From positions 1-44,816 of the forward strand of contig NZ_JADEWY010000044.1 of the NCBI RefSeq assembly GCF_015207375.1: a stretch of DNA of 44,816 bases. Reading direction: 5' to 3'. A program made the translations under genes and the position numbers. Shown here piece after piece: positions 2,871 through 19,791 of the stretch. Numbering within the stretch: the stretch's first letter is position 1; each line of letters begins with the position of its first letter. The notes below the pieces were generated by a model. The model saw only the letters and a program-made list of their open reading frames with translations, was not told the origin of the DNA and did no database searches. The stretch is from Coleofasciculus sp. LEGE 07092. Its GTDB lineage: Bacteria > Cyanobacteriota > Cyanobacteriia > Cyanobacteriales > Coleofasciculaceae.

Positions 2871-3620
2871 GTGTTTATAAAAAGCCGAAGTCAGCCTGAT
2901 TCGCGCTCGTTCAGTTTAGTTGATGCAGAAATAGGCACTATCCGGGCTCGAAGAGTAACGATGACATTTGAGTCAGGGCATCAGCGCTATCAAGTCCTGA
3001 AAGGGATTGATTGGAAAATTAAACGCGGCGATATCCAACTTTTAATGGGACCGTCTGGGTCGGGGAAAACCACCTTACTCTCAATTCTAGCTGGATTGCT
3101 CAAACCAAGCAACGGTCAGGTATATTTGCTGGGAGAAGAGATTACAGAGATGTCTCGCTCCAAGCTAGCACAGTTCAGGCTGCAAAACATCGGCTTTATT
3201 TTCCAGGGGTTCAACCTATTTCCAGCACTAACAGCAGCGGAGAATATAGAGTTCGTCCTCAACGTTAAAGGCATTCGCGGCAAAAAAGCCCGATTTCAAG
3301 CGCAAGAACTGCTAGAACAAGTCGGGTTGGGTTTGCAAGCCCATCAAAAACCAGCAGACTTATCCGGCGGACAGAAACAACGAGTTGCGATCGCTCGTGC
3401 TTTAGCGGGTCATCCTCAGATTATCATGGCAGATGAGCCAACGGCGGCATTAGACTCCCAGAGCGGACATAATGTAATTGAATTACTGCGTCGGCTGGCA
3501 AAGGAAGAAGGCTGCACAGTGCTGATGGTAACTCACGACCCTCGCATTGTCGATGTCGCTGACCGAATTACTCATCTAGAAGATGGGATATTGAAGGCAC
3601 CAGGCATCAGCCAATTCTAA
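2871..3620 (+). CDS. ABC transporter ATP-binding protein (LolD/MacB/DevA type)
   Basis: 249 residues from a GTG start. An alternative start is the ATG at 2961, just before the conserved core, and neither has a strong ribosome binding site. All nucleotide-binding motifs are visible: Walker A GPSGSGKT (60-67), Q-loop FQG (111-113), signature LSGGQ (164-168), Walker B IIMADEP (184-190) and the switch His in VTHD. The order and spacing fit the LolD/MacB/DevA group, ATPases that energise FtsX-like permeases for lipid, peptide or lipoprotein export. No permease or membrane-fusion subunit gene is adjacent, so the partner must be encoded elsewhere. The next gene, metG, starts 20 bp downstream on the same strand, so the two are probably co-transcribed. 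Confidence 0.9.
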   Translation: MFIKSRSQPDSRSFSLVDAEIGTIRARRVTMTFESGHQRYQVLKGIDWKIKRGDIQLLMGPSGSGKTTLLSILAGLLKPSNGQVYLLGEEITEMSRSKLAQFRLQNIGFIFQGFNLFPALTAAENIEFVLNVKGIRGKKARFQAQELLEQVGLGLQAHQKPADLSGGQKQRVAIARALAGHPQIIMADEPTAALDSQSGHNVIELLRRLAKEEGCTVLMVTHDPRIVDVADRITHLEDGILKAPGISQF

Positions 3621-5479: not shown

Positions 5480-6331
5480 TTACCCTTTAACTGAACCTTG
5501 GGGATTCAGCCCCACAATTTTTTTTGCTAAACCTAAAGTATTTAACGTTTGAATCGCCCACCAAGTTACATCAATTTCCCACCAACGCTGCCCAGCTTTT
5601 GCCACATTAGGGTGAGCATGGTGATTATTATGCCAACCTTCTCCATAGGTTAAGATCGCTGCCCACCAAAGGTTACGCGAACCATCATCTGAAGAGAAAT
5701 TACGATACCCTCGCAGGTGAGCTGCCGAGTTAATTAACCAGGTGCTATGCCAGAGCAATACTGCCCTTAAGAACATCCCATAGATGACAAACGACCATCC
5801 TCCTAACTCATACAACAGCAATCCCAGAGGAATTTGCAGGAGAAAGAAGTTGCGATTCAACCAACGGTAATAGGGGTCACGGTCTAGGTCAGGTACAAAT
5901 CTTTTATAATGCTCGTAATTGAAAAACTCCTCGCGGACATAAAAAAGCCACAAGATATGGCTCCACCAAAAACCTCGCGAAGCTGAGTAAGGGTCTTTTT
6001 CTGCATCCTCGGTATGGGCGTGATGCATCCGGTGTGCGGAAACCCAGAAAATGGGGCCTCCTTGAAGGGCAAGGGCACCGATGGTAGTAATAATATATTC
6101 CAACCACTTGGGCACCTGAAGACTACGGTGAGTTAAAAGTCGGTGATACCCTAAACAGATACCAATGCTGCCAAATAACCAGTGAAGAACTATCATTACT
6201 CCCAAAGCTGACCAAGAAAAAAACCAGGGAGCCAAAAGAGCTACGGCGTGAACTGCCCCCATAAAAGCAACAGTCGGCCAATTGAGAGCAAGGCGATGCT
6301 TGCCTTCAGGAATAGTTGATTGCGTTGTCAT
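5480..6331 (-). CDS. desC: Acyl-lipid delta-9 fatty acid desaturase
   Basis: 283 residues with a good ribosome binding site (GGAAAGA) just before the ATG. Introduces the first double bond at C9 of membrane-lipid acyl chains, using ferredoxin in cyanobacteria. The three di-iron histidine boxes are intact: HRLLTH (63-68), HRMHH (100-104) and HNNHH (234-238), separated by hydrophobic segments that span the membrane. Length and motif order match cyanobacterial DesC. It is followed 3' by a short AT-rich spacer and is convergent with metG. The upstream gap to the small gene at 6591 is about 260 bp, so it probably has its own promoter. Family membership is clear; the exact substrate position could only be told by close comparison. 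Confidence 0.95.
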   Translation of the reverse strand: MTTQSTIPEGKHRLALNWPTVAFMGAVHAVALLAPWFFSWSALGVMIVLHWLFGSIGICLGYHRLLTHRSLQVPKWLEYIITTIGALALQGGPIFWVSAHRMHHAHTEDAEKDPYSASRGFWWSHILWLFYVREEFFNYEHYKRFVPDLDRDPYYRWLNRNFFLLQIPLGLLLYELGGWSFVIYGMFLRAVLLWHSTWLINSAAHLRGYRNFSSDDGSRNLWWAAILTYGEGWHNNHHAHPNVAKAGQRWWEIDVTWWAIQTLNTLGLAKKIVGLNPQGSVKG

Positions 6332-9240: not shown

Positions 9241-10194
9241 CTATCTGACAATCTCGCGTAGTGTTTCCGGTACAGATCGCGGGTTCCATCCTAATTCGGT
9301 GCGAGCTTTAGTAGCATCTACCCGCACACAGCGATCATAAATATAGTGAACTCGTTCTCGACTGAGGGGAGGTTGCCAGTTGAAGAGGCGTCCGATGGGA
9401 TCGAGTAGGTTTCCAGCGAATTGGACGAGGGGTTTGGGTGCTTCAGCAGGGGCGGGAACACCTGTTTGTTGACTAATAAACTCGAACATTTCGCGGGTGG
9501 TGAGTTCTCCGGCGGAAATGATGTATTGTTCTCCAGGTTTGCCCTTTTCAGCCGCGAGAATTATTGCCGCAACTAAGTCATCAACGTGTACAATACCCGT
9601 AATGCGATCGCCCCCTGCCCAAACCTTGAGTCCGCCTTTGAGAAATTGTTTCAACACGGGACCAAAATGGGGGTCATCTGAGCCGAAAATTCCAGAGGGG
9701 AGGACACTAACCACGGGCAACCCTTGGGCGGCAAATTGGTTGACTAATTGTTGAGCTTGGTATTTAGTGCGATCGTAGGCTCCAGAAAAGTCTGTTTGCT
9801 GCCGTTGAAAGGTTTCGTCAACCACTTGACCTTTAGTATCACCAAATACGCCAATTGTGCTGCAATAGACAAGTTTGGATACGCCAACCGCTTGGGCGAG
9901 TTCCAACACGGCGCGGGTGCCTTCTACGTTTACCCGTTCCATTTTGGTGGCATCCACTAGTCCTAGTTCAACATAAGCAGCGGTGTGAAATACCCAGTCT
10001 ACCCCAGTCATTGCTGTTTGCAGGGCATTGCGATCGCTGATGTCGCCGTAAACGAGTTGCAGGTTGCAATGGGTGAGTCGATCTAGATTGCTGGACTTGC
10101 GGACTAAACCGACAACCGTATCACCCCGTTGTTCTAAGGCTTTGACTAAGTGGGAACCTGTAAATCCGTTGGCTCCAGTGACTAGTGCTTTCAT
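9241..10194 (-). CDS. NAD(P)-dependent epimerase/dehydratase (extended SDR)
   Basis: 317 residues. The ATG at 10194 is preferred over the GTG one codon earlier because AGGAGG lies at proper distance before it. The Rossmann NAD(P)-binding motif TGANGFTGSHL is at residues 6-16, the active-site Ser is in VYCSTIGVFG, and the catalytic YxxxK is YDRTK. LPSGIFGSDDPHFGP and TGIVHVDDL are typical of the dihydroflavonol-4-reductase/HpnA-like branch of extended SDRs. It probably reduces or epimerises a sugar-nucleotide, ketone or isoprenoid/lipid intermediate; the substrate cannot be told from sequence. It is followed by a Uma2 gene on the same strand upstream, 66 bp away. A role in the lipid locus at 14.4-18.5 kb is only speculative. 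Confidence 0.9.
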   Translation of the reverse strand: MKALVTGANGFTGSHLVKALEQRGDTVVGLVRKSSNLDRLTHCNLQLVYGDISDRNALQTAMTGVDWVFHTAAYVELGLVDATKMERVNVEGTRAVLELAQAVGVSKLVYCSTIGVFGDTKGQVVDETFQRQQTDFSGAYDRTKYQAQQLVNQFAAQGLPVVSVLPSGIFGSDDPHFGPVLKQFLKGGLKVWAGGDRITGIVHVDDLVAAIILAAEKGKPGEQYIISAGELTTREMFEFISQQTGVPAPAEAPKPLVQFAGNLLDPIGRLFNWQPPLSRERVHYIYDRCVRVDATKARTELGWNPRSVPETLREIVR

Positions 10195-10260
10195 CACTCC
10201 TCCTCTCGTGTAATGTTATTAGACTACAAGAGAAGCTCTTGCGATCGCATAAAACTCCAT

Positions 10261-10830
10261 CTAGAAGCGCTGTCCCAACTTCAGCCAAGAAAATACCTGT
10301 CCAACGGTTAGCCGCAGGTCTAGAAAATCTGGTACTGGTAAACTATCTTCTAGTTGTCGCTTAATTTCCGGTAATTGATTGGGTTGAAAGCAGAGGACTG
10401 CCTTCTCATCTGGGTCAATCAGCCATCCCAGGCTTGTTTGATGTCTGAGACAGAACAGAATATTATCAATTACCTTGGTCTGTGATTGGTCAGGTGAGAG
10501 GATTTCAATTGTCCAATCGGGAGAACGTTCAAAGACGTTGGCAACTTCTCCATCGGCATCGAAGGGAATTTTATCCCATTGAAAAACCGCTACATCTGGC
10601 ACGATGGAGCGTCCTCCGAAGGTACAGCGTAATTCTGGGAATGCATAGGCGATTTTTTTTTGGAATCCTGCCTCGTTGATTGTATCGGTCAGTCGTATTT
10701 GCAGGGTGCTGTGCTTCCCTTGAGGCATGGGTTTTTGGTAGATTTGACCGTTGATAAATTCGCGGGCTGGTTTAGTTTCGGGGAGTTTTAGAAATTCAGT
10801 TAGGGTGAGGGGTTTAGTTGTTGTGGTCAT
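10261..10830 (-). CDS. Uma2 family (DUF820) restriction-endonuclease-fold protein
   Basis: 189 residues. Starts MTTTTKPLTLTEFLKLPETKPA. The PD-(D/E)XK-like core is visible: E in AREFINGQI, SIVPDVAVF with the catalytic Asp, and WTIEILSPDQS with the Glu/Ser of motif III. Uma2 proteins are greatly expanded in filamentous cyanobacteria; their biological role is unclear and a link to mobile DNA is suspected. A near-paralogue is at 33622-34185 (shared PMPQGKHST and ELRCTFGGRSIVPDV). It is transcribed toward the dehydratase gene. Length is typical and the key residues look intact. Confidence 0.88.
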   Translation of the reverse strand: MTTTTKPLTLTEFLKLPETKPAREFINGQIYQKPMPQGKHSTLQIRLTDTINEAGFQKKIAYAFPELRCTFGGRSIVPDVAVFQWDKIPFDADGEVANVFERSPDWTIEILSPDQSQTKVIDNILFCLRHQTSLGWLIDPDEKAVLCFQPNQLPEIKRQLEDSLPVPDFLDLRLTVGQVFSWLKLGQRF

Positions 10831-10936
10831 GGTTGCTTTCCCAATATTTTGCTAGTCGATGGCTGAGAGTATACTCGCACCTAGCAAGATTCAACACGCG
10901 ATCGCTCAATCTGCGAAAAGCAATTTCAATTTTAAG

Positions 10937-12148
10937 CTAGAATTCAGAGTCAGAATCGTACTTAGTACCATCGTCGCTAACTCTTCCATCAGGCATTGTT
11001 GCTCCCCGGAAATCTGCCTTTCTTTCTTCAACACCGCTCAGATCTTTCCCAAAGAATTCAACACCTGTTATGTCAGCGCCAGTCAGGTCAGCATATTGAA
11101 AATTAGTGTTGTCTAATTGAACGTGGCTAAGGTTAGCATCCTTGAGAATAGTATGGCTGAGATCACTGTTTCTCAGGTCGGCACCGCTCAGATTAATACC
11201 GCTCAGGTCTAAACCACTTAGGTCGGTATAGCTCAAATTTGCATTACTTAGATTGGCATTAGTTAAGTTAGCTGTTTTGAGATGGGCATGGCTGAGGTTG
11301 GCATGGCTGAGGTTGGCATGGCTGAGATTGGCATGGCTGAGATCAGTTTTTCTCAGGTTGGCACTACTAAGGTTTGCGCTACTAAGGTTGGCATCAATTA
11401 AGCAATCGGCTTCTAATATGGCACTAGTAAGATCAGCACCAATCAGCTTGACTTCACGTAGGTCTGCCCAACTGAGATTCGCTTCCCTCAGTTTTGCATT
11501 GCTCAAGTCAGCTTTTCGTAGGTTTGCCCTGACCATTTTTGCCTCCTTTAAGTCTGCTGCTTTCAAAACTGCCTCACTTAGGTTTGCCCAATTAAGTTCC
11601 GCCTTTGTTAGAACACTTTCGCTTAGATCGGCTTCAGTCAATTCTGCATAGACCAACCTTGCCAAAATTAGCTTTGCTTGACTGAGCTTTGCCCTCCTTA
11701 AAGTTGCTGTATTCAAAGTTGCTTCTTCGAGATTGGCTTCTATCAAGTCGGCGTTATCCAAGGTAACGTTGCTCAGGTCAGCTTTGTGCAAGATAGCTTT
11801 AGTGAGAATAGCCCCAGTTAGATCTACTCCACTCAGATTTTCCTCATTCAAGCTTGCATCACTGAGATTAGCTCCGATAAAATTCCTCTCCCCGGCTGTA
11901 TATCGCTCCCGAAGCTCCTGTTCTGTCATTCGTTTTGAGGAATCAGCCTCTAGCGTAAACAGCTCGCCTAAGTCACAGCCGAAGTAGTTGCACAATACTT
12001 CAGCCGTGTTGCAGTCAATCCGGTTAAACTCCCCTTTGTAAAGCCTGCTGATGGCATTAATACTAAGGTCAGTCTCTTTAGCTAATTGGTACTGGGATAG
12101 CTCCCGTTTTTCCATCAAACCCTTCAGCTTACAGCAAATTCGTTTCAT
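10937..12148 (-). CDS. XRE-type HTH fused to long pentapeptide-repeat domain
   Basis: 403 residues from the ATG at 12148 (MKRICCKLKGLMEKRELSQYQ); the open frame extends further but without homology, and a GTG five codons upstream is an alternative. Residues 1-65 are a Cro/C1-type helix-turn-helix (LSQYQLAKETDLSINAISRLYKG...). After a short linker, about residues 90-390 are continuous A(D/N)LXX pentapeptides, about 55-60 units, forming a quadrilateral beta-helix; the final ~15 residues are acidic. Family knowledge: pentapeptide proteins such as MfpA/Qnr mimic DNA and protect gyrase, but most cyanobacterial ones are uncharacterised. The DNA-binding head suggests a regulator with a scaffold or DNA-mimic tail. 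It is divergent from the exonuclease gene. Confidence 0.88.
   Translation of the reverse strand: MKRICCKLKGLMEKRELSQYQLAKETDLSINAISRLYKGEFNRIDCNTAEVLCNYFGCDLGELFTLEADSSKRMTEQELRERYTAGERNFIGANLSDASLNEENLSGVDLTGAILTKAILHKADLSNVTLDNADLIEANLEEATLNTATLRRAKLSQAKLILARLVYAELTEADLSESVLTKAELNWANLSEAVLKAADLKEAKMVRANLRKADLSNAKLREANLSWADLREVKLIGADLTSAILEADCLIDANLSSANLSSANLRKTDLSHANLSHANLSHANLSHAHLKTANLTNANLSNANLSYTDLSGLDLSGINLSGADLRNSDLSHTILKDANLSHVQLDNTNFQYADLTGADITGVEFFGKDLSGVEERKADFRGATMPDGRVSDDGTKYDSDSEF
11291..11335 (-). repeat. 15-bp exact tandem repeats within the pentapeptide gene
   Basis: The unit GCTGAGGTTGGCATG on the plus strand (coding LSHAN on the minus strand) is repeated three times with only one change, giving consecutive ANLSH pentapeptides. 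Near-identity at DNA level marks a recent slippage expansion. Confidence 0.75.
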
Positions 12149-12319
12149 AAGCGCTTTGCTCACTCCTTGAGAATTAATCAGGAGGTATATCTCTTTATCT
12201 ACACTAGCGCATATTAGTAACCCTTGCGGATAGTAACGCTTGCGAAAGTAATATGCGACAAGAGTTGACAGGTTGGTATTTGCCAAGTTATCTTGAATGA
12301 GTTCGATGGCAGAAGTGCC

Positions 12320-12354
12320 AAAAAAAAAGACCCCCAAGCGGCTAACTTGAGGGG
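12320..12354 (-). terminator. Rho-independent terminator on minus strand upstream of exonuclease gene
   Basis: Read on the minus strand: an 8-bp stem (CCCTCAAG / CTTGGGGG, one G-U pair), 7-base loop, then TC and nine T. This is a textbook intrinsic terminator, but no minus-strand gene precedes it, since the exonuclease gene at 12392 is on the plus strand. It would end an antisense transcript or shield the pentapeptide gene promoter from read-in. Confidence 0.65.
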
Positions 12355-12391
12355 AAATTATTCAATTTGTAATTCTTTTTCTGTTTTCATT

Positions 12392-13150
12392 ATGGCACAA
12401 AAACTGTTAGCTGTCTCTGAGAGACAGCCCTACACGCTTGATCAAGTTCTAATCGTTGATACCGAGACAACGGGTCTGGAAGTTGACACAGCACAGGTGA
12501 TAGAGATTGGAGCAATCCTGTATTCGGTAAAGCACCAAACCACTATCCAGCAATTTTCCACAATGCTCCCAGCAAATACTAATCCAGCAGAGCATATCAA
12601 CCGGATTAAATCTGCACCCCTAAGGGAAATAACAGAAAAACAAGCTGCTCAGGGGATATTGATACTCACTGAAATGGCTCAGATGGCTGAAGTCGTTGTG
12701 GCGCACAATGCCGAATTTGATAAGAAGTGGTTTGGTCTCTCAAGAAATGGGAATAGTCTACTCCCTGCCTTACTGAACTACAAGGGTAAACCCCTTTCTT
12801 GGGTATGTACCTGTAGTGACTTTGAGTGGCCTTATCAAACTCGCCCTGGTCAATCTCTTATCGAATTGGCAGCAGCGCATGACATTGGGATTTTTGGAAC
12901 TCACCGGGCACTAACAGATTGTCAGTTAATTGCAGCTCTTTTTGATCGCATGGAAAACTTGGAAGCTATGTTTGAGAAAGCCTTGAGACCAAAGGCTTTC
13001 TTTAAAGCTCTTGTAACCTATGACGAGCGAGAAAAAGCCAAAAAAGTGGGTTTCAAATGGATTCCTGAGCGAAAAAGCTGGGAGCGAAGAATGGCTGTAG
13101 AGGATAGCAAAAAACTTCCTTTCCCAGTCATGCAAATAGCACCCTGTTAA
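12392..13150 (+). CDS. DEDDh 3'-5' exonuclease (DnaQ-like) with C-terminal DUF5710-like domain
   Basis: 252 residues from the ATG at 12392 (MAQKLLAVSERQPYTLDQV); an upstream in-frame start at 12293 would run through the terminator hairpin and is unlikely. Exo I is VDTETTGL with the catalytic D and E, Exo II is VVAHNAEFD, Exo III is GTHRALTDC with His and Asp, so the DEDDh set is complete. About residues 205-240, VTYDEREKAKKVGFKWIPERKSWERRM, resemble the small DUF5710 domain found in plasmid and phage-linked DNA-processing proteins. It is probably a DNA exonuclease in repair or defence rather than a Pol III epsilon subunit. Divergent from the HTH-pentapeptide gene, so the pair may share regulation. 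Confidence 0.88.
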   Translation: MAQKLLAVSERQPYTLDQVLIVDTETTGLEVDTAQVIEIGAILYSVKHQTTIQQFSTMLPANTNPAEHINRIKSAPLREITEKQAAQGILILTEMAQMAEVVVAHNAEFDKKWFGLSRNGNSLLPALLNYKGKPLSWVCTCSDFEWPYQTRPGQSLIELAAAHDIGIFGTHRALTDCQLIAALFDRMENLEAMFEKALRPKAFFKALVTYDEREKAKKVGFKWIPERKSWERRMAVEDSKKLPFPVMQIAPC

Positions 13151-13360
13151 TAAGTTGGAGAGGGGTGACAGCCTGACTGTACTAGCAGCGACGCTGCCAC
13201 TCCTCATAAACTCTTTCCTTGAGTTCCTGAAAAAGTAGTAATTAACACTTCGCCGTTGATTGTTTTATTTAAAAGCCAGCTTGCTGAAATCAGCTATAGC
13301 GATCGCATTTAGCCCCTCTCACTCCCATCCCAACATTTCATTAAAGTCCCAAAGCCATTA

Positions 13361-14368
13361 ATGATCGACCATGACCGCTTATTTAAAGAACTCCTAACCA
13401 CCTTTTTCGTAGAGTTCATAGAATTATTTTTACCAGATGTTGCCGCTTATCTGGAGCGTGACTCCATCGCATTTTTAGACAAAGAACTATTCACTGATAT
13501 TACAGCCGGAGAACGATATGAAGCCGATTTAATCGTTAAAGCCCAATTTCAAGAACAAGAATCCTTCTTCCTCATCCACCTAGAACACCAGGCACAGAAT
13601 CAAGCCCAATTCGGTAAGCGGATGTTTCGTTATTTTGCCCGCTTGTCTGAAAAACACGATTTACCCGTCTATCCCATTGCTCTATTTTCCTACAACGCTC
13701 CCCACCGTCCAGAACCGAACGCTTACCAAGTAGTATTCCCCAATAAAATTGTCTTGCAGTTCAACTATGATGTAATTCAGCTCAATCGCCTCAATTGGCG
13801 AGACTTCATGCGTAACCCCAATCCCGTGGCGAGTGCGTTGATGGCGAAAATGAACATTGCCCCCGAAGAACGCCCCAGAGTCAAGTTAGAATGTCTGCGG
13901 TTGCTGGCAACCCTAAGACTCGATCCTGCGAAGATGCAGCTAATTTCTGGGTTTATTGACACCTATCTCCAACTCAATACTGAGGAGGAAGCACGCTTAA
14001 GATCTGAAATTGCTACGATTGAACCAACCGAGCAGGAGGCAGTTATGCAAATTGTTACCAGTTGGATGCGGGAAGGTATAGAACAAGGACTTCAACAAGG
14101 GAGACAAGAAGGACTCCAACAAGGGATACAACTCGGACTGCAACAAGGATTACAACTCGGACGCCAGGAAGGTGAGTCAGCATTAATCCTGCGCTTAATC
14201 ACCCGCCGATTTGGTTTGATTGAGCCTGAGTTACAAGAGTCTATTCGCCAGTTAACCTTACCTCAGTTAGAAACGTTAGCCGAGGCGCTGCTAGAGTTCT
14301 CCGATCGCACAGATTTAGTAACGTGGTTACAACAAGTTTCACAACACTCAGATATCGAACGCTCCTGA
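13361..14368 (+). CDS. Rpn-family PD-(D/E)XK nuclease-like protein with DUF4351
   Basis: 335 residues. The N-terminus MIDHDRLFKELLTTFFVEFIELFLPDV, the D in YEADLIVKAQF and the E in FFLIHLEHQAQ are the signature of Rpn/PDDEXK transposase-like nucleases common in cyanobacteria. A Gln/Gly-rich repeat (IEQGLQQGRQEGLQQG and variants) forms the linker at about 240-270. The C-terminus LILRLITRRFGLIEPELQESIRQL is a DUF4351 domain. Related E. coli Rpn proteins are DNA endonucleases that stimulate RecA-independent recombination. Here the gene stands alone and its role is unknown. No strong ribosome binding site is visible, but the ATG fits the family's start. Confidence 0.88.
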   Translation: MIDHDRLFKELLTTFFVEFIELFLPDVAAYLERDSIAFLDKELFTDITAGERYEADLIVKAQFQEQESFFLIHLEHQAQNQAQFGKRMFRYFARLSEKHDLPVYPIALFSYNAPHRPEPNAYQVVFPNKIVLQFNYDVIQLNRLNWRDFMRNPNPVASALMAKMNIAPEERPRVKLECLRLLATLRLDPAKMQLISGFIDTYLQLNTEEEARLRSEIATIEPTEQEAVMQIVTSWMREGIEQGLQQGRQEGLQQGIQLGLQQGLQLGRQEGESALILRLITRRFGLIEPELQESIRQLTLPQLETLAEALLEFSDRTDLVTWLQQVSQHSDIERS

Positions 14369-14461
14369 CATCTTTCTTCAGTTCGCGCAGGTGGTCACTG
14401 AGCTTGTCGAAGTGCGGACTTTGTTTTTATAGCCCTTGACTTCAGTCGCCAGGTAATTCTT

Positions 14462-15607
14462 TCACAACCCTTTCTCATAAACTCGATACGTCTTATAAAT
14501 CTTCCCCCCCGACGCCTCAATCAACTTGCGAGACGGAAAATTATCCTCCCAAACCCAACCGAGTTCTGCTCGTTTGTAAGGTTTGCCCTTCTTAATTCCC
14601 CCCTGCATTCCCAAATAAATTAACGCCAGAGGCACCATTTTCCGGCGATACTCCGGTAGTGAACAAATCGCTATCACCCGTCCTTGGTCAATCTGACGAC
14701 GATACCACAGAAACTTGAGAATTCCCAGCCAGTTCAGTTTCTCACCAACCTGTTTTAGGGGGATATTATAGTCTGGTAATCCCATCCAAAAGCCAATCAT
14801 TTCCTCCTTATCTTCGGCGATTGGAAAAACATCTGGATCAACTAAACTTTGCAACGCCTTCGCTTCTTCTAGAAATTCTTCCTCAGTTCTAGGGGCAGAA
14901 CTCCAGTTATTGGCAAAGGCACGGTTAAATAGGTGATAAAGGCTAATACAATCTTGCTCAAATTCCTGACCTTTAGTTCTAAGAGGGCGAAAGGTAATGC
15001 CAGATTTACAAGCAATCTGATACGCCTTCTCAAACTTATCCGGTAGGGGCTTATCTAACGGAAAATCATAGGCATAGGCATCCTTAGCTTTTTGCCAGCC
15101 ATCCCGTTCCATAAATTGGGAATAGTAACAGGGATTGTAAGGCATCATCACCATCGGCGGCGTGTCAAAACCATCGACCAAAAACAAACAACTGTTGTGA
15201 GTCGATAAATCGATGGGACCCCGCACCTCTGTCATACCTTGCTCTCGCAACCACTGACAGGCAGCATTGAGTAACGCTTGTGCGATCGCAAAATCTTCAA
15301 CGCATTCAAAAAATCCAAACAACCCAACCGTTTTACCCTCCCGTTCGACCAACCGCTGATTCACCGCTGCCACAATTCGTCCTACTGCCTGGGAAAGGTT
15401 TGAAGGATCTAGGGCAATAAACTGCTGTAATTTTCCATAACTAAAAAAGGAATTAGTGGGTACAAAGTTCTTGGCAACATCACTGCGCAAAGACGGCACC
15501 CAGTTGGAGTCATTAGCATAGACTCGTGCTGGCACATCCAGAAACAGTTCTTGATCTGTTGGAGTTGTAACAGCACGAATCTGAATATCGGTAGTAGTTT
15601 TCAGCAC
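14462..15607 (-). CDS. Large GNAT-like N-acyltransferase, bacterial ceramide-synthase-like class
   Basis: 381 residues from a GTG start preceded by GAAGAGG. The N-terminus reads IQIRAVTTPTDQELFLDVP with DSNWVPSLRSDV, then AVGRIVAAVNQR, GLFGFFECVEDFAIAQALL, GMTEVRGPIDLSTHNSCLFLVDGFDTPPMVMMPYNPCYY. This pattern belongs to a double-GNAT family often annotated as N-acetyltransferase or dATP pyrophosphohydrolase; as I recall, the Caulobacter ceramide synthase bCerS is of this type. It lies 52 bp after the alpha-oxoamine synthase on the same strand, so probably one operon. Inference: it N-acylates the amino ketone or amino alcohol made by that enzyme. Alternative: acylation of another amine. The family fold is fairly sure, the substrate is not. 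Confidence 0.75.
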   Translation of the reverse strand: MLKTTTDIQIRAVTTPTDQELFLDVPARVYANDSNWVPSLRSDVAKNFVPTNSFFSYGKLQQFIALDPSNLSQAVGRIVAAVNQRLVEREGKTVGLFGFFECVEDFAIAQALLNAACQWLREQGMTEVRGPIDLSTHNSCLFLVDGFDTPPMVMMPYNPCYYSQFMERDGWQKAKDAYAYDFPLDKPLPDKFEKAYQIACKSGITFRPLRTKGQEFEQDCISLYHLFNRAFANNWSSAPRTEEEFLEEAKALQSLVDPDVFPIAEDKEEMIGFWMGLPDYNIPLKQVGEKLNWLGILKFLWYRRQIDQGRVIAICSLPEYRRKMVPLALIYLGMQGGIKKGKPYKRAELGWVWEDNFPSRKLIEASGGKIYKTYRVYEKGL

Positions 15608-15659
15608 TTGAACGACCTCTTCATTCAGGAGTTTGAATTAGGAATTTTGAAAGAATTCC

Positions 15660-16940
15660 TCAAGCACTAATCATCGGCTTGTACAATGAATCTCGCGTTG
15701 CTACCATTGCTGTGACCAAGCGATCCATTTCCTCTTTCGTATGCAGAGCATTAGCAGTAATCCGGATGCGGGGTTTGGCAATAAACCAAATGGGTGAAAC
15801 CCAAATCCCGTGGTTCTCGATCATAGACCGACCGAATAGCTTCGGGTCAATCTCTGATGGTAAAATAACAGGAATTACATTCGTTTCACCAATCGCATCA
15901 AACCCCTGTTCGAGCAAGCGCGATCGCAAGTAGCGTGTATTTGCCTGAAGTTGCTGAACGAGTTGGGGAGATTGACGTACCTGACGAATACTCTCTAACG
16001 CCGCCGCCGTGAGGGGAGGTGATAAAGAAATCGTACCAATGGAAGTTGGAGAAACATTTAAGAGGGGAATCAGTTCTTCTACATGAGTGCTAATTGCCGC
16101 CCCCGCAGATGCTGCAAACTTCGAGAACGTAGTCATGATCAGCGGCACAATACCTCGCTCAATCGCGTATTGTGGCTGAATATTAAAATACTCATAAATT
16201 CCCCTACCCGTCGCACCAATCGCCCCACTAGCATGGGCTTCATCCATAACCAATACGCTACCATCATACTGTTGCAGTACGTCAATCATCCCTGGCAGAG
16301 GTGCAATATCTCCGTCCATTGAGAACACGGCATCAGAAATGACCATAATTCGGTCATTTGGACGAACAAACCGACGCAGCTTGCGAGCTAAATCCTCCAC
16401 ATCGCAGTGCCGATAGGCTCTGACACGGACTCGGGGACTATGACCAAACAATTTTCCGGAACGAGTGCCCGCATTCACTACGGCTGAGACAATGCAACCG
16501 TGGTTGAGAACATCCGTCAAAATCACGGTTTCGCGGGTATGCTGGAAGCCAGGAACCTGAATGGCTAGATGACAGTACGCATCCATTAAGGCTTGCATTG
16601 CCATCCAAGCATTCAGAAATAGCTGAGTATGGGGCAGGTGCTTAAACTCAGAAATCTCGTTTTCTAGCTGTCGATGCAAATCAATGCGACCGCTTAACAC
16701 CGAGGTAGAACTGTTAGAGGTGCCATAGTGGAAGATAGCATCAACCGCTGCTTGGCGCACCGCATCATTCTGAACCAAACCCAACACGTCATTCGTGCAG
16801 AAGGTTACAACAGTGTGACGCTTTCCTGTGGCTACAGATTCAATCTCAACTAAATTCCCCTGCTTTTTATGACAAATATACTCATCGGGCTCAAGTCCGC
16901 TTTCGTACCAGCGCTGGACGTATTCTTTGACAACTTGCAC
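15660..16940 (-). CDS. Alpha-oxoamine synthase (serine palmitoyltransferase/AONS/KBL family)
   Basis: 426 residues, GTG start (MQVVKEYVQRW) with GAGGAG about 8 bases upstream. PLP-dependent fold-type I enzyme that condenses an amino acid with an acyl thioester, releasing CO2. Visible residues: His147 in LTDVLNHGCIV (stacks on PLP), SDAVFSMDGD (202-211), Asp233/His236 in VMDEAHASG, and PLP-Lys274 in TTFSKFAAS. The TFSK context resembles serine palmitoyltransferase more than BioF or KBL (TLGK). Sequence from GTSNSSTSVLSGRIDLH is also characteristic of the family. Neighbours: Rieske oxygenase upstream, GNAT acyltransferase 52 bp downstream. It therefore looks like the first step of a sphingoid or other oxoamine pathway; whether serine, glycine or alanine is used cannot be told. 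Confidence 0.88.
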   Translation of the reverse strand: MQVVKEYVQRWYESGLEPDEYICHKKQGNLVEIESVATGKRHTVVTFCTNDVLGLVQNDAVRQAAVDAIFHYGTSNSSTSVLSGRIDLHRQLENEISEFKHLPHTQLFLNAWMAMQALMDAYCHLAIQVPGFQHTRETVILTDVLNHGCIVSAVVNAGTRSGKLFGHSPRVRVRAYRHCDVEDLARKLRRFVRPNDRIMVISDAVFSMDGDIAPLPGMIDVLQQYDGSVLVMDEAHASGAIGATGRGIYEYFNIQPQYAIERGIVPLIMTTFSKFAASAGAAISTHVEELIPLLNVSPTSIGTISLSPPLTAAALESIRQVRQSPQLVQQLQANTRYLRSRLLEQGFDAIGETNVIPVILPSEIDPKLFGRSMIENHGIWVSPIWFIAKPRIRITANALHTKEEMDRLVTAMVATRDSLYKPMISA

Positions 16941-17257
16941 AACTTTACTCCTCTCACCTTAATTCCTAGATAGCTTATTACCTCTGTCTAAAGAAGTATA
17001 TTGTTTAGCTCAGATAGCCGCTATCCAGAGCGGATACCATACCCGACAATTGCTGAGTTTACAAGCTGACGGGGTGTAGGGAACCACCTTACCCCAATAT
17101 GTCTGTACTGCGACAGTATCAGCATCCAGTCAAAGGGGAAGTTGACGAACCGAGCCACGGTCAACTGCAGTGTGAAGTGTGAAGTATGAAGTATGAAATC
17201 ACCCTCTCTAATTTGAGGGGCTTGTCTACCTTCATGATCGCCTGTCTTTTTCATCCT
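16941..17257. other. Intergenic region with heptamer repeat between Rieske and oxoamine synthase genes
   Basis: 317 bp. Four 7-mers (TGTGAAG twice, TATGAAG, TATGAAA) lie at 17171-17198. An open frame of 77 codons crosses them, but it contains the repeat translation and no family resemblance, so I do not call a gene. The gap may separate two transcription units. Confidence 0.55.
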
Positions 17258-18478
17258 TCATCCTTTCGGGTCGCCTTTACAGTTGCCTTCATCTAAATTA
17301 ATGAGTTCTATTGGGTTGGCTCTGTTAACTCTGATGCTATCGCTGGCGACACAGCCGATGCTTTGGCTGTCACTAACGCTTGGCTCTTCAGAAGCTTGCG
17401 AGTCGGTGTGCTGATGGTTTGGCGGCTGACTCGATTGTTGCACAAATTTTTCATACTGCCGGATAATCACCCGTTGAAGAGCGATAATCGCTGGATTAAT
17501 TTCGACATAGCGTCGTTGGCGATTCCCCAGATAAGTTTGCTGTTCGCTTTCGATCATCTCGACATCTTGATCGAGAAATTGCTTAAGTAAAAAGCGCCAG
17601 ATGAACTTAGATAACCAGGGATCGAGAGCTTTTAATAACCACTGCGGCAAGCGGACTTTGAGAAACATCAGGGAAAAGGATTGGGTAAAAGTTGGTGCCA
17701 CTGGCAACCGCATCAGGTATAAAGAGGAAACGCCCTCAAGAGAACTATTATAGTGAGGATAGCGGTATCGGATTGAGACGGTACGGGTCGTTACCTGATC
17801 ACCCTGTTCGCTCAGTCCTAGAAATTTTGTCATCCAACCTTGATAGGAAACTTGGTACTCAGCACAAACTTCTGCATCAGTTTGTTGCAAATTAATCAAG
17901 ACTGGATTGAACCAACCTTGTAAGTTTTTATGCAAAAACCCGTGAAACACATCCATCGTGTTTTCGTTACAGATGGAGAAATGGGCTTGAAATCTGGCTG
18001 GGATTGGCACCATTAACCAATTCGGATCGTCAAACTCTGGAACATCAGGGAAGGGAATCTCCTCTGCCAAGTGAGTATCACCAGGAAAAACCCAGATAAT
18101 ACTATATTTTTCCCGAACAGGATAGCTGCGGACTCTGGCACAGGGTAATTTTTGTTCTTTAGGCAGGTAGGGAATGCCAACACACTGACCCTCTCCGTTA
18201 AATTCCCAGCCATGATAGGCACATAATAGGCGATCGCCTTGGACTTGACCTTTGTGCAGAGCAACTCCTTTGTGAGGGCAAGCATCCTCTAAGGCATGGA
18301 GGTTGCCGTTGGTGTCGCGGTAAAGGGCAATCACTTGCTGCCAAACCACTACAGGCATCACCTGTCCAGCCTGGAGTTGGCTAGCCCAAGCCACCGGATA
18401 CCAGTAATTTGGATTGATACCCACTTCTCTTACAGCATTTTGGACTGTTTGACTGGTTAGGGTCGTAGCCAGTTCCAT
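17258..18478 (-). CDS. Rieske [2Fe-2S] oxygenase
   Basis: 406 residues. The N-terminal Rieske domain has CPHKG (Cys67, His69) and CAYHGW (Cys86, His89), ligating the 2Fe-2S centre. The catalytic domain carries the mononuclear-iron motif NENTMDVFHGFLH with Asp176, His179 and His183 (2-His-1-carboxylate). Hydrophobic residues about 270-310 suggest membrane association, as in the PaO/Tic55-like class of cyanobacterial and plastid oxygenases. A Ser/Gln-rich tail (about 350-406) is unlike the family core. Being upstream of the oxoamine synthase and GNAT genes on the same strand, it could hydroxylate or desaturate their lipid product; the substrate is not known. AGAGGCAGGGG precedes the ATG. Divergent from the MFS gene with 164 bp between them. 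Confidence 0.88.
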   Translation of the reverse strand: MELATTLTSQTVQNAVREVGINPNYWYPVAWASQLQAGQVMPVVVWQQVIALYRDTNGNLHALEDACPHKGVALHKGQVQGDRLLCAYHGWEFNGEGQCVGIPYLPKEQKLPCARVRSYPVREKYSIIWVFPGDTHLAEEIPFPDVPEFDDPNWLMVPIPARFQAHFSICNENTMDVFHGFLHKNLQGWFNPVLINLQQTDAEVCAEYQVSYQGWMTKFLGLSEQGDQVTTRTVSIRYRYPHYNSSLEGVSSLYLMRLPVAPTFTQSFSLMFLKVRLPQWLLKALDPWLSKFIWRFLLKQFLDQDVEMIESEQQTYLGNRQRRYVEINPAIIALQRVIIRQYEKFVQQSSQPPNHQHTDSQASEEPSVSDSQSIGCVASDSIRVNRANPIELINLDEGNCKGDPKG

Positions 18479-18642
18479 AAACCCCTGCCTCTTTTGAGCT
18501 GTTTATCTGACAATATTTAGCCTGCTGGTTGTCCTAAGTCAATCAACCCGTTGGATCGAATCCAAACAGAACGACTAAGCGTCAGACTATCTGAATCTAT
18601 CGGTATGCGTTATGGTTGTCAAAAATTTTAGGAATTTCATTC

Positions 18643-19791
18643 ATGTTCCGCGATCCTAGGCTATTAGTGCTATTGGCAGCAGGTTCCCTCACCACCATGG
18701 CGGGGGGAGTGATTGCACCAATTCTGCCAGAGATGATACAACAACTTGAACTTGATCCAGCTTTTGCGGGGAATCTGGTAAGCCTCCATTGCCTGACGAT
18801 TGCCCTGTTTAGTCCCCCACTGGGAATCTTGGCAGACCGGTTTGGTCATTTGCGAGTGCTGATACCGTCTCTAGTCCTTTACGCCTTGTTTGGCGTTGCT
18901 GGGGCGTTGATGCAGGCACTAGAACCGCTGTTAGTGGTGCGGGGGTTACTGGGTGCAGCGAGTGGTGGTATCGCAGCAGCGAGTCTAGGCTTGCTAGGGA
19001 ATATGTATGAAGGCGAAACGCGATCGCAAGCCCTAGGCTATGCCACCAGTACCCTCACTATCACAGGCATTGCTTTCCCACTTCTAGGTGGTTGGGTGGG
19101 TTCAGTTCACTGGCAGTTTGCTTTCTGTCTTTACGGGTTAGGACTACCTCTAGCGTTTTTAGCCGCATTTTTTTTAGAGGACAAGCAACCCACCAAAGCA
19201 AAGCAGACAGCCAACAACTCTGGCAGCAAACTCAAAGAAATTTTAGGACATCCCCAAACCCTCCGATTGTTACTAGCCCTCAGCCTCGCTTCGATTTCCA
19301 TGTATGCTGTGGTCATTTATGCCCCGATCTACCTGAAAGCGACTATTAATGCTGGAGCAATGGTTAACGGCATTGTTCTGGCGTCTAGAGCCGTGGGTGC
19401 TGCTATCATATCGGCATTTGGAGCAAAATGGCTCGCCAAGAGGTTAGGGGCAGCAACGGCGACGGCTATTGGATTTGGTTTGATGGCATTGACGCTGACA
19501 ACCATCCCATGGCTGCACCAACTTAGTTGGATTTTAGTAACCGCCATATTCTTTGGTGTCGGATTTGGTTTAGTGCTACCCACCCTCTACAGCACCCTAG
19601 CTAATCTCGCTCCCCCAGAACTCCGTTCCAGTGTGCTAGCTGCTGGAACCGGAACGGGATTTTTGGGACAGTTTCTTTCCCCGATATTACTCGGTCCAGT
19701 TTTTGGCTACAGCGGATTAGAAGGCGTCTTTTATGCCGCCGCAGTAGTGGCGTTAGTGGCGGGATTGGTGCTGTTTGCTCGGAAGCTTTAA
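18643..19791 (+). CDS. MFS transporter
   Basis: 382 residues from the ATG at 18643, preceded by AGGAA 8 bases upstream; a TTG 27 bp earlier is possible. Twelve hydrophobic segments are apparent. The loop 2-3 motif is GILADRFGHLRVLIP, the classic MFS motif A, and a central hydrophilic loop EDKQPTKAKQTANNSGS separates the halves. Length and layout fit drug:H+ antiporter-type exporters. The gene is divergent from the Rieske oxygenase gene, sharing a 164-bp intergenic region, so it may be co-regulated and export a product of that locus; this is inference. The next gene is convergent and a fold-back element at 19844-19906 separates them. Confidence 0.9.
   Translation: MFRDPRLLVLLAAGSLTTMAGGVIAPILPEMIQQLELDPAFAGNLVSLHCLTIALFSPPLGILADRFGHLRVLIPSLVLYALFGVAGALMQALEPLLVVRGLLGAASGGIAAASLGLLGNMYEGETRSQALGYATSTLTITGIAFPLLGGWVGSVHWQFAFCLYGLGLPLAFLAAFFLEDKQPTKAKQTANNSGSKLKEILGHPQTLRLLLALSLASISMYAVVIYAPIYLKATINAGAMVNGIVLASRAVGAAIISAFGAKWLAKRLGAATATAIGFGLMALTLTTIPWLHQLSWILVTAIFFGVGFGLVLPTLYSTLANLAPPELRSSVLAAGTGTGFLGQFLSPILLGPVFGYSGLEGVFYAAAVVALVAGLVLFARKL

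What the first reader, a model, noticed from the sequence alone, without database searches (positions are those of the whole stretch)
14462..18478. Candidate cyanobacterial sphingolipid-like or oxoamine-lipid locus
Three minus-strand genes in order: Rieske oxygenase, an alpha-oxoamine synthase with serine-palmitoyltransferase-like TFSK PLP-lysine context, and a large GNAT acyltransferase of the class that, as I recall, contains the Caulobacter ceramide synthase. The last two are 52 bp apart, both with GTG starts and purine-rich ribosome binding sites. Condensation, N-acylation and hydroxylation are the steps of ceramide-type lipid making, which is little known in cyanobacteria. An MFS transporter is divergent from the Rieske gene. 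The sequences are seen; the pathway is inference.
Basis: partly seen in the sequence, partly recalled or inferred. Interest (0 to 1): 0.78.

Follow-up and report, generated by a model that had tools for sequence, protein, structure and literature searches.

The report
Cyanobacterial ceramide-like lipid gene set
A patchily distributed group of cyanobacteria carries genes that occur together and look like a diverged version of the bacterial pathway for ceramide-type membrane lipids, a class of lipid whose genetic basis in cyanobacteria is not known.

Summary
In 292 cyanobacterial genomes, orthologues of AOS, GNAT and SDR occur in the same 22 genomes, even where unlinked; Rieske orthologues occur in 15 of those 22 and none of the other 270. 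The GNAT belongs to the family of bCerS/aca (Caulobacter CC_1154, E. coli YghO); AOS-GNAT-SDR operons also occur in Rubrobacter and Streptomyces. A route of condensation, N-acylation and reduction, with optional oxygenation, is well supported by inference. Against a plain 'sphingolipid locus': the AOS fails every SPT, BioF and KBL cut-off tested and forms its own long-stemmed clade of unresolved place; GNAT and SDR are separate deep lineages too. Substrate and product are unknown. I read it as a diverged cyanobacterial variant of the bacterial ceramide pathway.

The parts
15660..16940 (-). alpha-oxoamine synthase (426 aa, GTG start): predicted condensation of an acyl thioester with an amino acid
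   Evidence: H147, D233, H236, T271, K274, R393 align with H159, D231, H234, T262, K265, R390 of a Sphingomonas SPT; orthologues in 22 of 292 genomes
14462..15607 (-). GNAT of the bCerS/aca family (381 aa, GTG start): predicted N-acyltransferase
   Evidence: orthologues (56% identity or more) in 22 of 292 genomes
   Evidence: adjoins the GNAT gene in relatives; GANGFTG and YDRTK motifs; orthologues in the same 22 of 292 genomes
17258..18478 (-). Rieske non-haem iron oxygenase (406 aa): predicted oxygenation of the product; accessory
   Evidence: CxH..CxxH at 67 and NxxDxxHxxxH at 173; orthologues in 15 of the 22 carriers and 0 of 270 others
18616..19791 (+). MFS transporter divergent from the Rieske gene; possible exporter, membership uncertain
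   Evidence: homologue in the fetched neighbourhood of 11 of 22 carriers; not counted in non-carriers
10198..14461 (.). 4.3 kb between SDR and GNAT with Uma2, pentapeptide/HTH, exonuclease and DUF4351 genes, taken as an insertion, not part of the pathway
   Evidence: gap 0-893 bp in nine other carriers, 5.2 kb in G159

Best explanation
A cyanobacterial ceramide-like pathway. Inferred steps: (1) the AOS condenses an activated fatty acid (acyl-ACP or acyl-CoA, not tested) with an amino acid, probably serine but possibly another, giving a long-chain aminoketone; (2) the bCerS-family GNAT N-acylates it; (3) the extended SDR reduces the keto group, before or after acylation; (4) in about two thirds of carriers the Rieske enzyme oxygenates the product; an MFS protein may export it. 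Shown: gene identities, catalytic motifs, co-occurrence, partial operons, homology to known ceramide operons. Not shown: any substrate, product or order of steps.
For: Same 22 of 292 genomes for AOS, GNAT and SDR (set identity checked), although 6 of the 22 have neither AOS-GNAT nor GNAT-SDR linkage. AOS-GNAT adjacent on one strand in 14 of 22; GNAT-SDR in 9 within 1.5 kb and 11 within 8 kb. Rieske orthologues in 15 of 22 and 0 of 270. The GNAT matches the N-acetyltransferase in a Sphingomonas locus whose AOS passes an SPT cut-off (833 of 670 bits) and E. coli YghO, which PMC9386255 lists as the 'aca' counterpart of CC_1154. AOS-GNAT-SDR run contiguously in Rubrobacter and Streptomyces. GNAT E265 and R310 are in 29 of 29 cyanobacterial GNATs and in 9 and 10 of 10 ceramide-context ones, against 0 and 1 of 11 others. 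All 6 carriers tested have a separate BioF above cut-off, one only just (426.6 against 426.45).
Against: The AOS scores higher on BioF (225 bits) than on SPT models (112-167) and is below every cut-off tested. In both trees it is outside the SPT clade, on a stem of 2.1-2.2 changes per site, and sides weakly with cyanobacterial BioF (76/74 in the first). The GNAT is a separate deep clade, and the SDR sides with HpnA rather than proteobacterial CerR. No acyl-ligase-sized family recurs in the neighbourhoods of more than 4 genomes, apart from the genes named (ACP-sized ORFs were not clustered). NHAS reads NHGC, and where the Sphingomonas SPT has R378 the clade has an invariant W385 followed by a 4-residue deletion, so serine binding cannot be assumed.
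Confidence: 0.6

Rival explanations
1. Same chemistry, other amino acid: the AOS uses glycine, alanine or a sulfonated amino acid, so the product is an N-acylated 1-deoxy or sulfono-lipid rather than a serine-based ceramide. (A sub-case of the best explanation; confidence counted apart.)
For: The AOS is its own lineage with clade-specific insertions and a shortened substrate loop. Structure matches do not single out SPT: ThaOS, KBL, SPT and ALAS chains all lie at Z 41-42, cysteate acyl-ACP transferase 7u7h at 40.2.
Against: The catalytic residues are common to AOS enzymes; nothing points to a particular other amino acid.
Confidence: 0.25
2. A small secreted natural product: the AOS and GNAT make an N-acylated aminoketone, the SDR and Rieske tailor it, and the MFS protein exports it; not a membrane lipid.
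For: MFS gene beside the set in 11 of 22; patchy distribution; the Rieske's nearest solved relatives are tailoring enzymes SxtDIOX and SxtT (88 and 81 bits).
Against: The genes are kept together in 6 genomes where AOS-GNAT and GNAT-SDR are unlinked, unlike a typical cluster; the GNAT is of the ceramide-synthase family. DdmC is as close to the Rieske as SxtT (80 bits), so that match is not specific.
Confidence: 0.12
3. A sterol or hopanoid tailoring locus: Rieske and SDR act as SdmA and SdmB or HpnA, and the AOS and GNAT are unrelated neighbours.
For: The best NCBIfam model for the Rieske is SdmA (234 bits) and those for the SDR are HpnA (216) and SdmB (151).
Against: All are far below cut-offs of 600, 367.65 and 600; the genome has a separate true HpnA (469.6 bits); the SDR tracks AOS and GNAT in 22 of 22 genomes but the Rieske in 15.
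Confidence: 0.04
4. The AOS is a second BioF or a KBL for biotin or threonine metabolism.
For: BioF is its best NCBIfam model, and it sides weakly with cyanobacterial BioF in the tree.
Against: 225 of 426 bits for BioF and 194 of 460 for KBL; a canonical BioF is present in all 6 carriers tested; full co-occurrence with GNAT and SDR.
Confidence: 0.03

Closest known systems
Bacterial ceramide pathway Spt / bCerS (aca) / CerR (epi) of Caulobacter, Sphingomonas and E. coli BL21
   Same: One AOS, one bCerS-family GNAT and one extended SDR that co-occur, with the same AOS catalytic residues and the same GNAT family (PMC9386255, section 13).
   Different: AOS below SPT cut-offs and outside the SPT clade; no acpR or aasR seen beside it, though ACP-sized ORFs were not clustered; a Rieske enzyme added; all three proteins are separate deep lineages.
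AOS-GNAT-SDR operons of Rubrobacter radiotolerans and Streptomyces sp. NBC_01001 (plasmid records)
   Same: Same three families in the same order.
   Different: Their AOS score 377-444 bits on SPT-CFB (below its cut-off) and lie in the SPT clade; no Rieske is annotated beside them; about 33% (GNAT) and 28-31% (AOS) identical to the window proteins.
BioF (8-amino-7-oxononanoate synthase)
   Same: AOS fold and catalytic residues; best NCBIfam score of the AOS.
   Different: 225 of 426 bits; the genome has a canonical BioF elsewhere.
SdmA/SdmB sterol demethylation enzymes and HpnA
   Same: Nearest NCBIfam models of the Rieske and the SDR.
   Different: Far below cut-offs; true HpnA is a separate gene.

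Membership tests
Serine palmitoyltransferase | passes a curated SPT equivalog cut-off (NF047599, NF047600, NF047603) | tested here: not met
   158.4/500, 167.3/640, 111.9/670 bits; three SPT controls (L074, L075, L226) each passed at least one
Serine palmitoyltransferase | lies in the SPT clade | tested here: inconclusive
   outside in both trees; held with SPT not rejected, p 0.149 and 0.436
Serine palmitoyltransferase | AOS catalytic residues (PLP lysine, stacking His, Asp, His) | tested here: met
   K274, H147, D233, H236 aligned; shared by other AOS, so not specific
Serine palmitoyltransferase | makes 3-ketosphinganine from serine | not testable with these tools
   needs enzyme assay
bCerS (aca) | full-length homology to bCerS-family proteins of known ceramide loci | tested here: met
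   29-34% over 98-99% of the protein to Sphingomonas, P. veronii, Diaphorobacter and E. coli members; Caulobacter bCerS itself was not obtained
bCerS (aca) | nested within the bCerS clade | tested here: inconclusive
   own clade (100/100), deep branches unresolved
bCerS (aca) | N-acylates a long-chain base | not testable with these tools
   needs enzyme assay
CerR (epi) | extended SDR with GxxGxxG and YxxxK | tested here: met
   GANGFTG at 8, YDRTK at 141; not specific to CerR
CerR (epi) | groups with CerR-like proteins of ceramide loci | tested here: inconclusive
   17-row unrooted tree: with HpnA (97/97); the Aureispira CerR-like protein is on the same side; few outgroups
HpnA | passes TIGR03466 cut-off of 367.65 | tested here: not met
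   216.2 and 217.3 bits; the genome's other copy has 469.6
BioF | passes TIGR00858 cut-off of 426.45 | tested here: not met
   225.3 bits; canonical BioF elsewhere, 462.8 bits
KBL | passes NF005394 or TIGR01822 cut-off | tested here: not met
   193.6/460 and 168.5/493 bits
SdmA sterol monooxygenase | passes NF052579 cut-off of 600 | tested here: not met
   234.1 bits

The most novel reading that the evidence does not exclude
Cyanobacteria own a separately diverged ceramide-type pathway: a new AOS class, a bCerS-like acyltransferase and an HpnA-like reductase put together in the same three-step logic as in proteobacteria, with a Rieske enzyme as the oxygenating step, making a lipid class not yet described.
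Probability: 0.3. Interest if true: 0.82.

Novelty: new variant of a known kind. Interest (0 to 1): 0.63.

Why it matters
PMC8895605 (parts 1-5 of 8 read) says that two ceramides have been reported from cyanobacteria (Scytonema julianum, Moorea producens) without a genetic basis, and found that Nostoc punctiforme makes no unbranched sphingolipids and has one AOS, a BioF. This gene set names three core genes to test and predicts which strains should make such lipids. It also shows the AOS + GNAT + SDR logic with diverged parts, which bears on whether that logic arose or was rebuilt more than once. Since sphingomonads live in cyanobacterial cultures (PMC13028669, abstract and passages seen), knowing the genes would help to assign a lipid to the cyanobacterium rather than to a companion.

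Tried and rejected
Considered and rejected: BioF or KBL function; HpnA or sterol locus; a defence system (no PADLOC match for AOS, GNAT or Rieske); TFSK as proof of SPT. Canonical SPT of the CFB type over its cut-off: 0 of 292 cyanobacterial genomes; the alpha- and beta-proteobacterial SPT models were not run over the genomes.

Led nowhere: the GNAT model was poor (8 sequences, mean pLDDT 51.7), so no fold comparison with bCerS was made. The AOS model was good (81.1), but its best matches to ThaOS, KBL, SPT and ALAS are tied. Phmmer of the GNAT against the PDB gave nothing better than E 0.45. No Caulobacter bCerS sequence was obtained; Sphingomonas and E. coli YghO stand in.

Rows used: AOS tree 1 had 47 rows (8 of 22 cyanobacterial orthologues; 25 of 68 distant loci that are not cyanobacterial BioF). 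Tree 2 had 48 rows after dropping Bact_L224, L193 and L179 and adding four. The AU test printed (p 0.0127) left out three rows nested in the SPT clade and should not be used; one search repeats it with them (p 0.436). GNAT tree: 9 of 22 cyanobacterial orthologues, 14 of 44 plasmid records, 7 distant cyanobacterial ones. SDR tree: 9 of 22 cyanobacterial, 7 CerR-like, 1 HpnA. In the ORF clustering only ORFs of 90 aa or more were used, and one cluster of 7 genomes was left aside because its members with coordinates printed overlap the AOS gene on the other strand. The MFS was counted only near carriers. Seen as passages only: PMC11334938, PMC11087976, PMC12872458, PMC10331486, PMC12619533, PMC13028669; PMC9386255 passages plus section 13 whole; PMC6272925 search listing only.
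Full report
Observation. The window holds, on the minus strand, a Rieske oxygenase (17258-18478), an alpha-oxoamine synthase (AOS, 15660-16940) and a 381-aa GNAT (14462-15607), and a divergent MFS gene (18616-19791, plus strand). AOS and GNAT are 52 bp apart; both start with GTG after purine-rich stretches.

The missing gene. In many relatives the gene next to the GNAT is an extended SDR reductase. In the window it lies at 9241-10197, parted from the GNAT by 4.3 kb with a DUF4351 protein, an exonuclease, a pentapeptide/HTH protein and a Uma2 protein. In nine other carriers the gap is 0-893 bp on the same strand; in G159 it is 5.2 kb; in the remaining 11 the two are unlinked.

Co-occurrence. 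The same draw of 292 cyanobacterial genomes was searched with each protein. GNAT: 40 genomes at E <= 1e-3, with a clear gap: 22 at 56-100% identity (472 bits and more), the other 18 at 34% or less (158 bits and less). AOS at E <= 1e-100: 22 genomes, 72-100% identity. SDR at E <= 1e-90: 22 genomes, 64-100%. The last two limits were set by me and the next-best matches were not displayed. The three sets are identical and cover 17 genera. If genomes were independent draws, such an identity of two sets would have a chance near 1e-33; they are related, so this is only a scale. More telling, in 6 of the 22 (G011, G033, G045, G116, G135, G286) neither AOS-GNAT nor GNAT-SDR is linked within 8 kb, yet all three are kept; and in families f2 and f26 some genomes have all three (G002, G066, G207; G215) while G118 and G170 are in none of the three hit lists. 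AOS and GNAT sit side by side on one strand in 14 of 22, GNAT and SDR in 9 (11 within 8 kb).

Rieske and MFS. Rieske orthologues (56% identity or more, about 490 bits or more) occur in 15 of the 22 and in none of the other 270; the next level is a 42%, 263-bit paralogue, found in many genomes with and without the set (at most six candidates per genome were scored). In 13 of the 15 the gene lies beside the AOS on the same strand, 79-2052 bp away. Clustering ORFs of 90 aa or more in the fetched neighbourhoods gave AOS 22, GNAT 22, SDR 22, Rieske 15, MFS 11, an ABC ATPase 8, and a 7-genome cluster of ORFs that, where coordinates were printed, overlap the AOS on the other strand; no other family reached more than 4 genomes. 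ACP-sized ORFs were not clustered.

Named carriers. In the DNA held, all ten have a Rieske match (48-73%; partial in L143), 7 the GNAT and 4 the SDR at orthologue level.

GNAT. The protein has only a marginal Pfam GNAT match (23.6 bits) and no NCBIfam match; the homologues from ceramide loci that I tested have none either. In plasmid records it matches 44, all under 60% identity. Among them: the N-acetyltransferase of a Sphingomonas parapaucimobilis locus with ACP, AOS and LptF/LptG, whose AOS passes an SPT cut-off (833 of 670 bits); P. veronii and Diaphorobacter loci whose AOS also pass one (615 and 582 of 500); and E. coli YghO, beside an AOS 46% identical to the Sphingomonas SPT and an SDR. 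PMC9386255 lists yghO as counterpart of CC_1154, one of the genes required for dihydroceramide formation. In Rubrobacter radiotolerans and Streptomyces sp. NBC_01001 AOS, GNAT and SDR are contiguous in that order. The family also has members with no AOS in the fetched stretch, in Chloroflexota, Clostridia, Rhizobium and Tunicatimonas, so family membership alone does not prove ceramide synthesis. The tree puts the cyanobacterial GNATs in their own clade (100/100), with deep branches unresolved. Yet E265 and R310 are in 29 of 29 cyanobacterial GNATs and in 9 and 10 of 10 ceramide-context GNATs, but in 0 and 1 of 11 other homologues. 'Ceramide-context' means an AOS in the fetched stretch (9) or, for Roseomonas, LptF/LptG and lipid genes only (1). 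The residues were picked from the same data, so they are suggestive.

AOS. The catalytic residues are present and align with those of a Sphingomonas SPT. But scores are BioF 225 (cut-off 426), KBL 194 (460), SPT 112-167 (500-670). Against 9 distant AOS the clade has three insertions and a four-residue deletion in the loop before RIR, NHGC in place of NHAS, and an invariant W385 where the Sphingomonas SPT has R378. In two trees it stands on a stem of 2.1-2.2 changes per site, outside a well-supported clade of SPT and GNAT-linked AOS (100/98 and 99/100) and weakly next to cyanobacterial BioF. Holding it with SPT is not rejected (p 0.149, 0.436), nor with KBL (p 0.272). So it is a separate AOS lineage of unsettled place. 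It is not the biotin enzyme: all six carriers tested have a canonical BioF elsewhere, one just over the cut-off. The predicted structure is a standard AOS with tied best matches.

SDR. It has the cofactor and YxxxK motifs and scores 217 bits on HpnA (cut-off 368), while the same genome has a true HpnA (469.6 bits). In a small unrooted tree it sides with HpnA rather than the proteobacterial CerR-like proteins.

Reading. The best account is a ceramide-like pathway: condensation, N-acylation, ketone reduction, and oxygenation in most carriers. That it works like the bacterial ceramide pathway is well supported; that it is that pathway is not shown, as the AOS fails the SPT cut-offs and the substrate is unknown.

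What is in print. Searches of the held open-access library listed one paper on the genetics of cyanobacterial sphingolipids: PMC8895605 (parts 1-5 of 8 read). It states that no genetic basis had been reported, shows that the single AOS of N. punctiforme did not act as an SPT in E. coli, and notes extra AOS genes in M. producens and S. julianum. Only the first 15-25 papers of the longer listings were shown. Most subscription papers are not held, and Stankeviciute et al. 2022 was not, so an earlier mention cannot be excluded. Caveat: sphingomonads live in cyanobacterial cultures (PMC13028669, passages seen), so lipid reports from xenic material need care.

Noticed in passing
L233, L235, L255 (genomes G211, G058; also G083): A second, unrelated cyanobacterial sphingoid-base candidate: an open frame of about 1100 aa with AMP-ligase, ACP and AOS domains (Pfam scan on the 884-aa part held in L233). 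The AOS domain of G211 and G058 nests in the SPT clade (99/100); the three genomes score 444-449 of 640 bits on SPT-CFB. A classical SDR follows (seen in L233, L235, L255); the L233 one has TSC10 3-ketodihydrosphingosine reductase as best PDB match (117.7 bits against 88 for the next).
   Followed up: partly
genomes G001, G007, G016, G021, G041, G050 (same phylum, other classes): Distant GNAT homologues (25-34% identity) occur in genomes that also have an AOS of 306-404 bits on SPT-CFB (canonical BioF reaches about 300-350 there), on other contigs.
   Followed up: partly
window 5480-6331: Fatty acid desaturase (69 bits) on the same strand as the gene set; a homologue lies in one other carrier neighbourhood, G215.
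   Followed up: no
window 2871-3620: ABC transporter ATPase with homologues in the neighbourhoods of 8 of 22 carriers (window's own included), probably only because the family is common.
   Followed up: no
AOS start, window 16940 and 21 orthologues: The codon aligned with the AOS start reads V in plain translation and M as a start in all 22 genomes, that is GTG.
   Followed up: no
L226, Diaphorobacter sp. JS3051 plasmid pDCB2: A plasmid typed as conjugative IncP carries an AOS above an SPT cut-off, a bCerS-family GNAT, ACP, fatty acyl-AMP ligase, LptF/LptG-like permeases and CDP-alcohol phosphatidyltransferases: a mobile sphingolipid-type gene set.
   Followed up: partly
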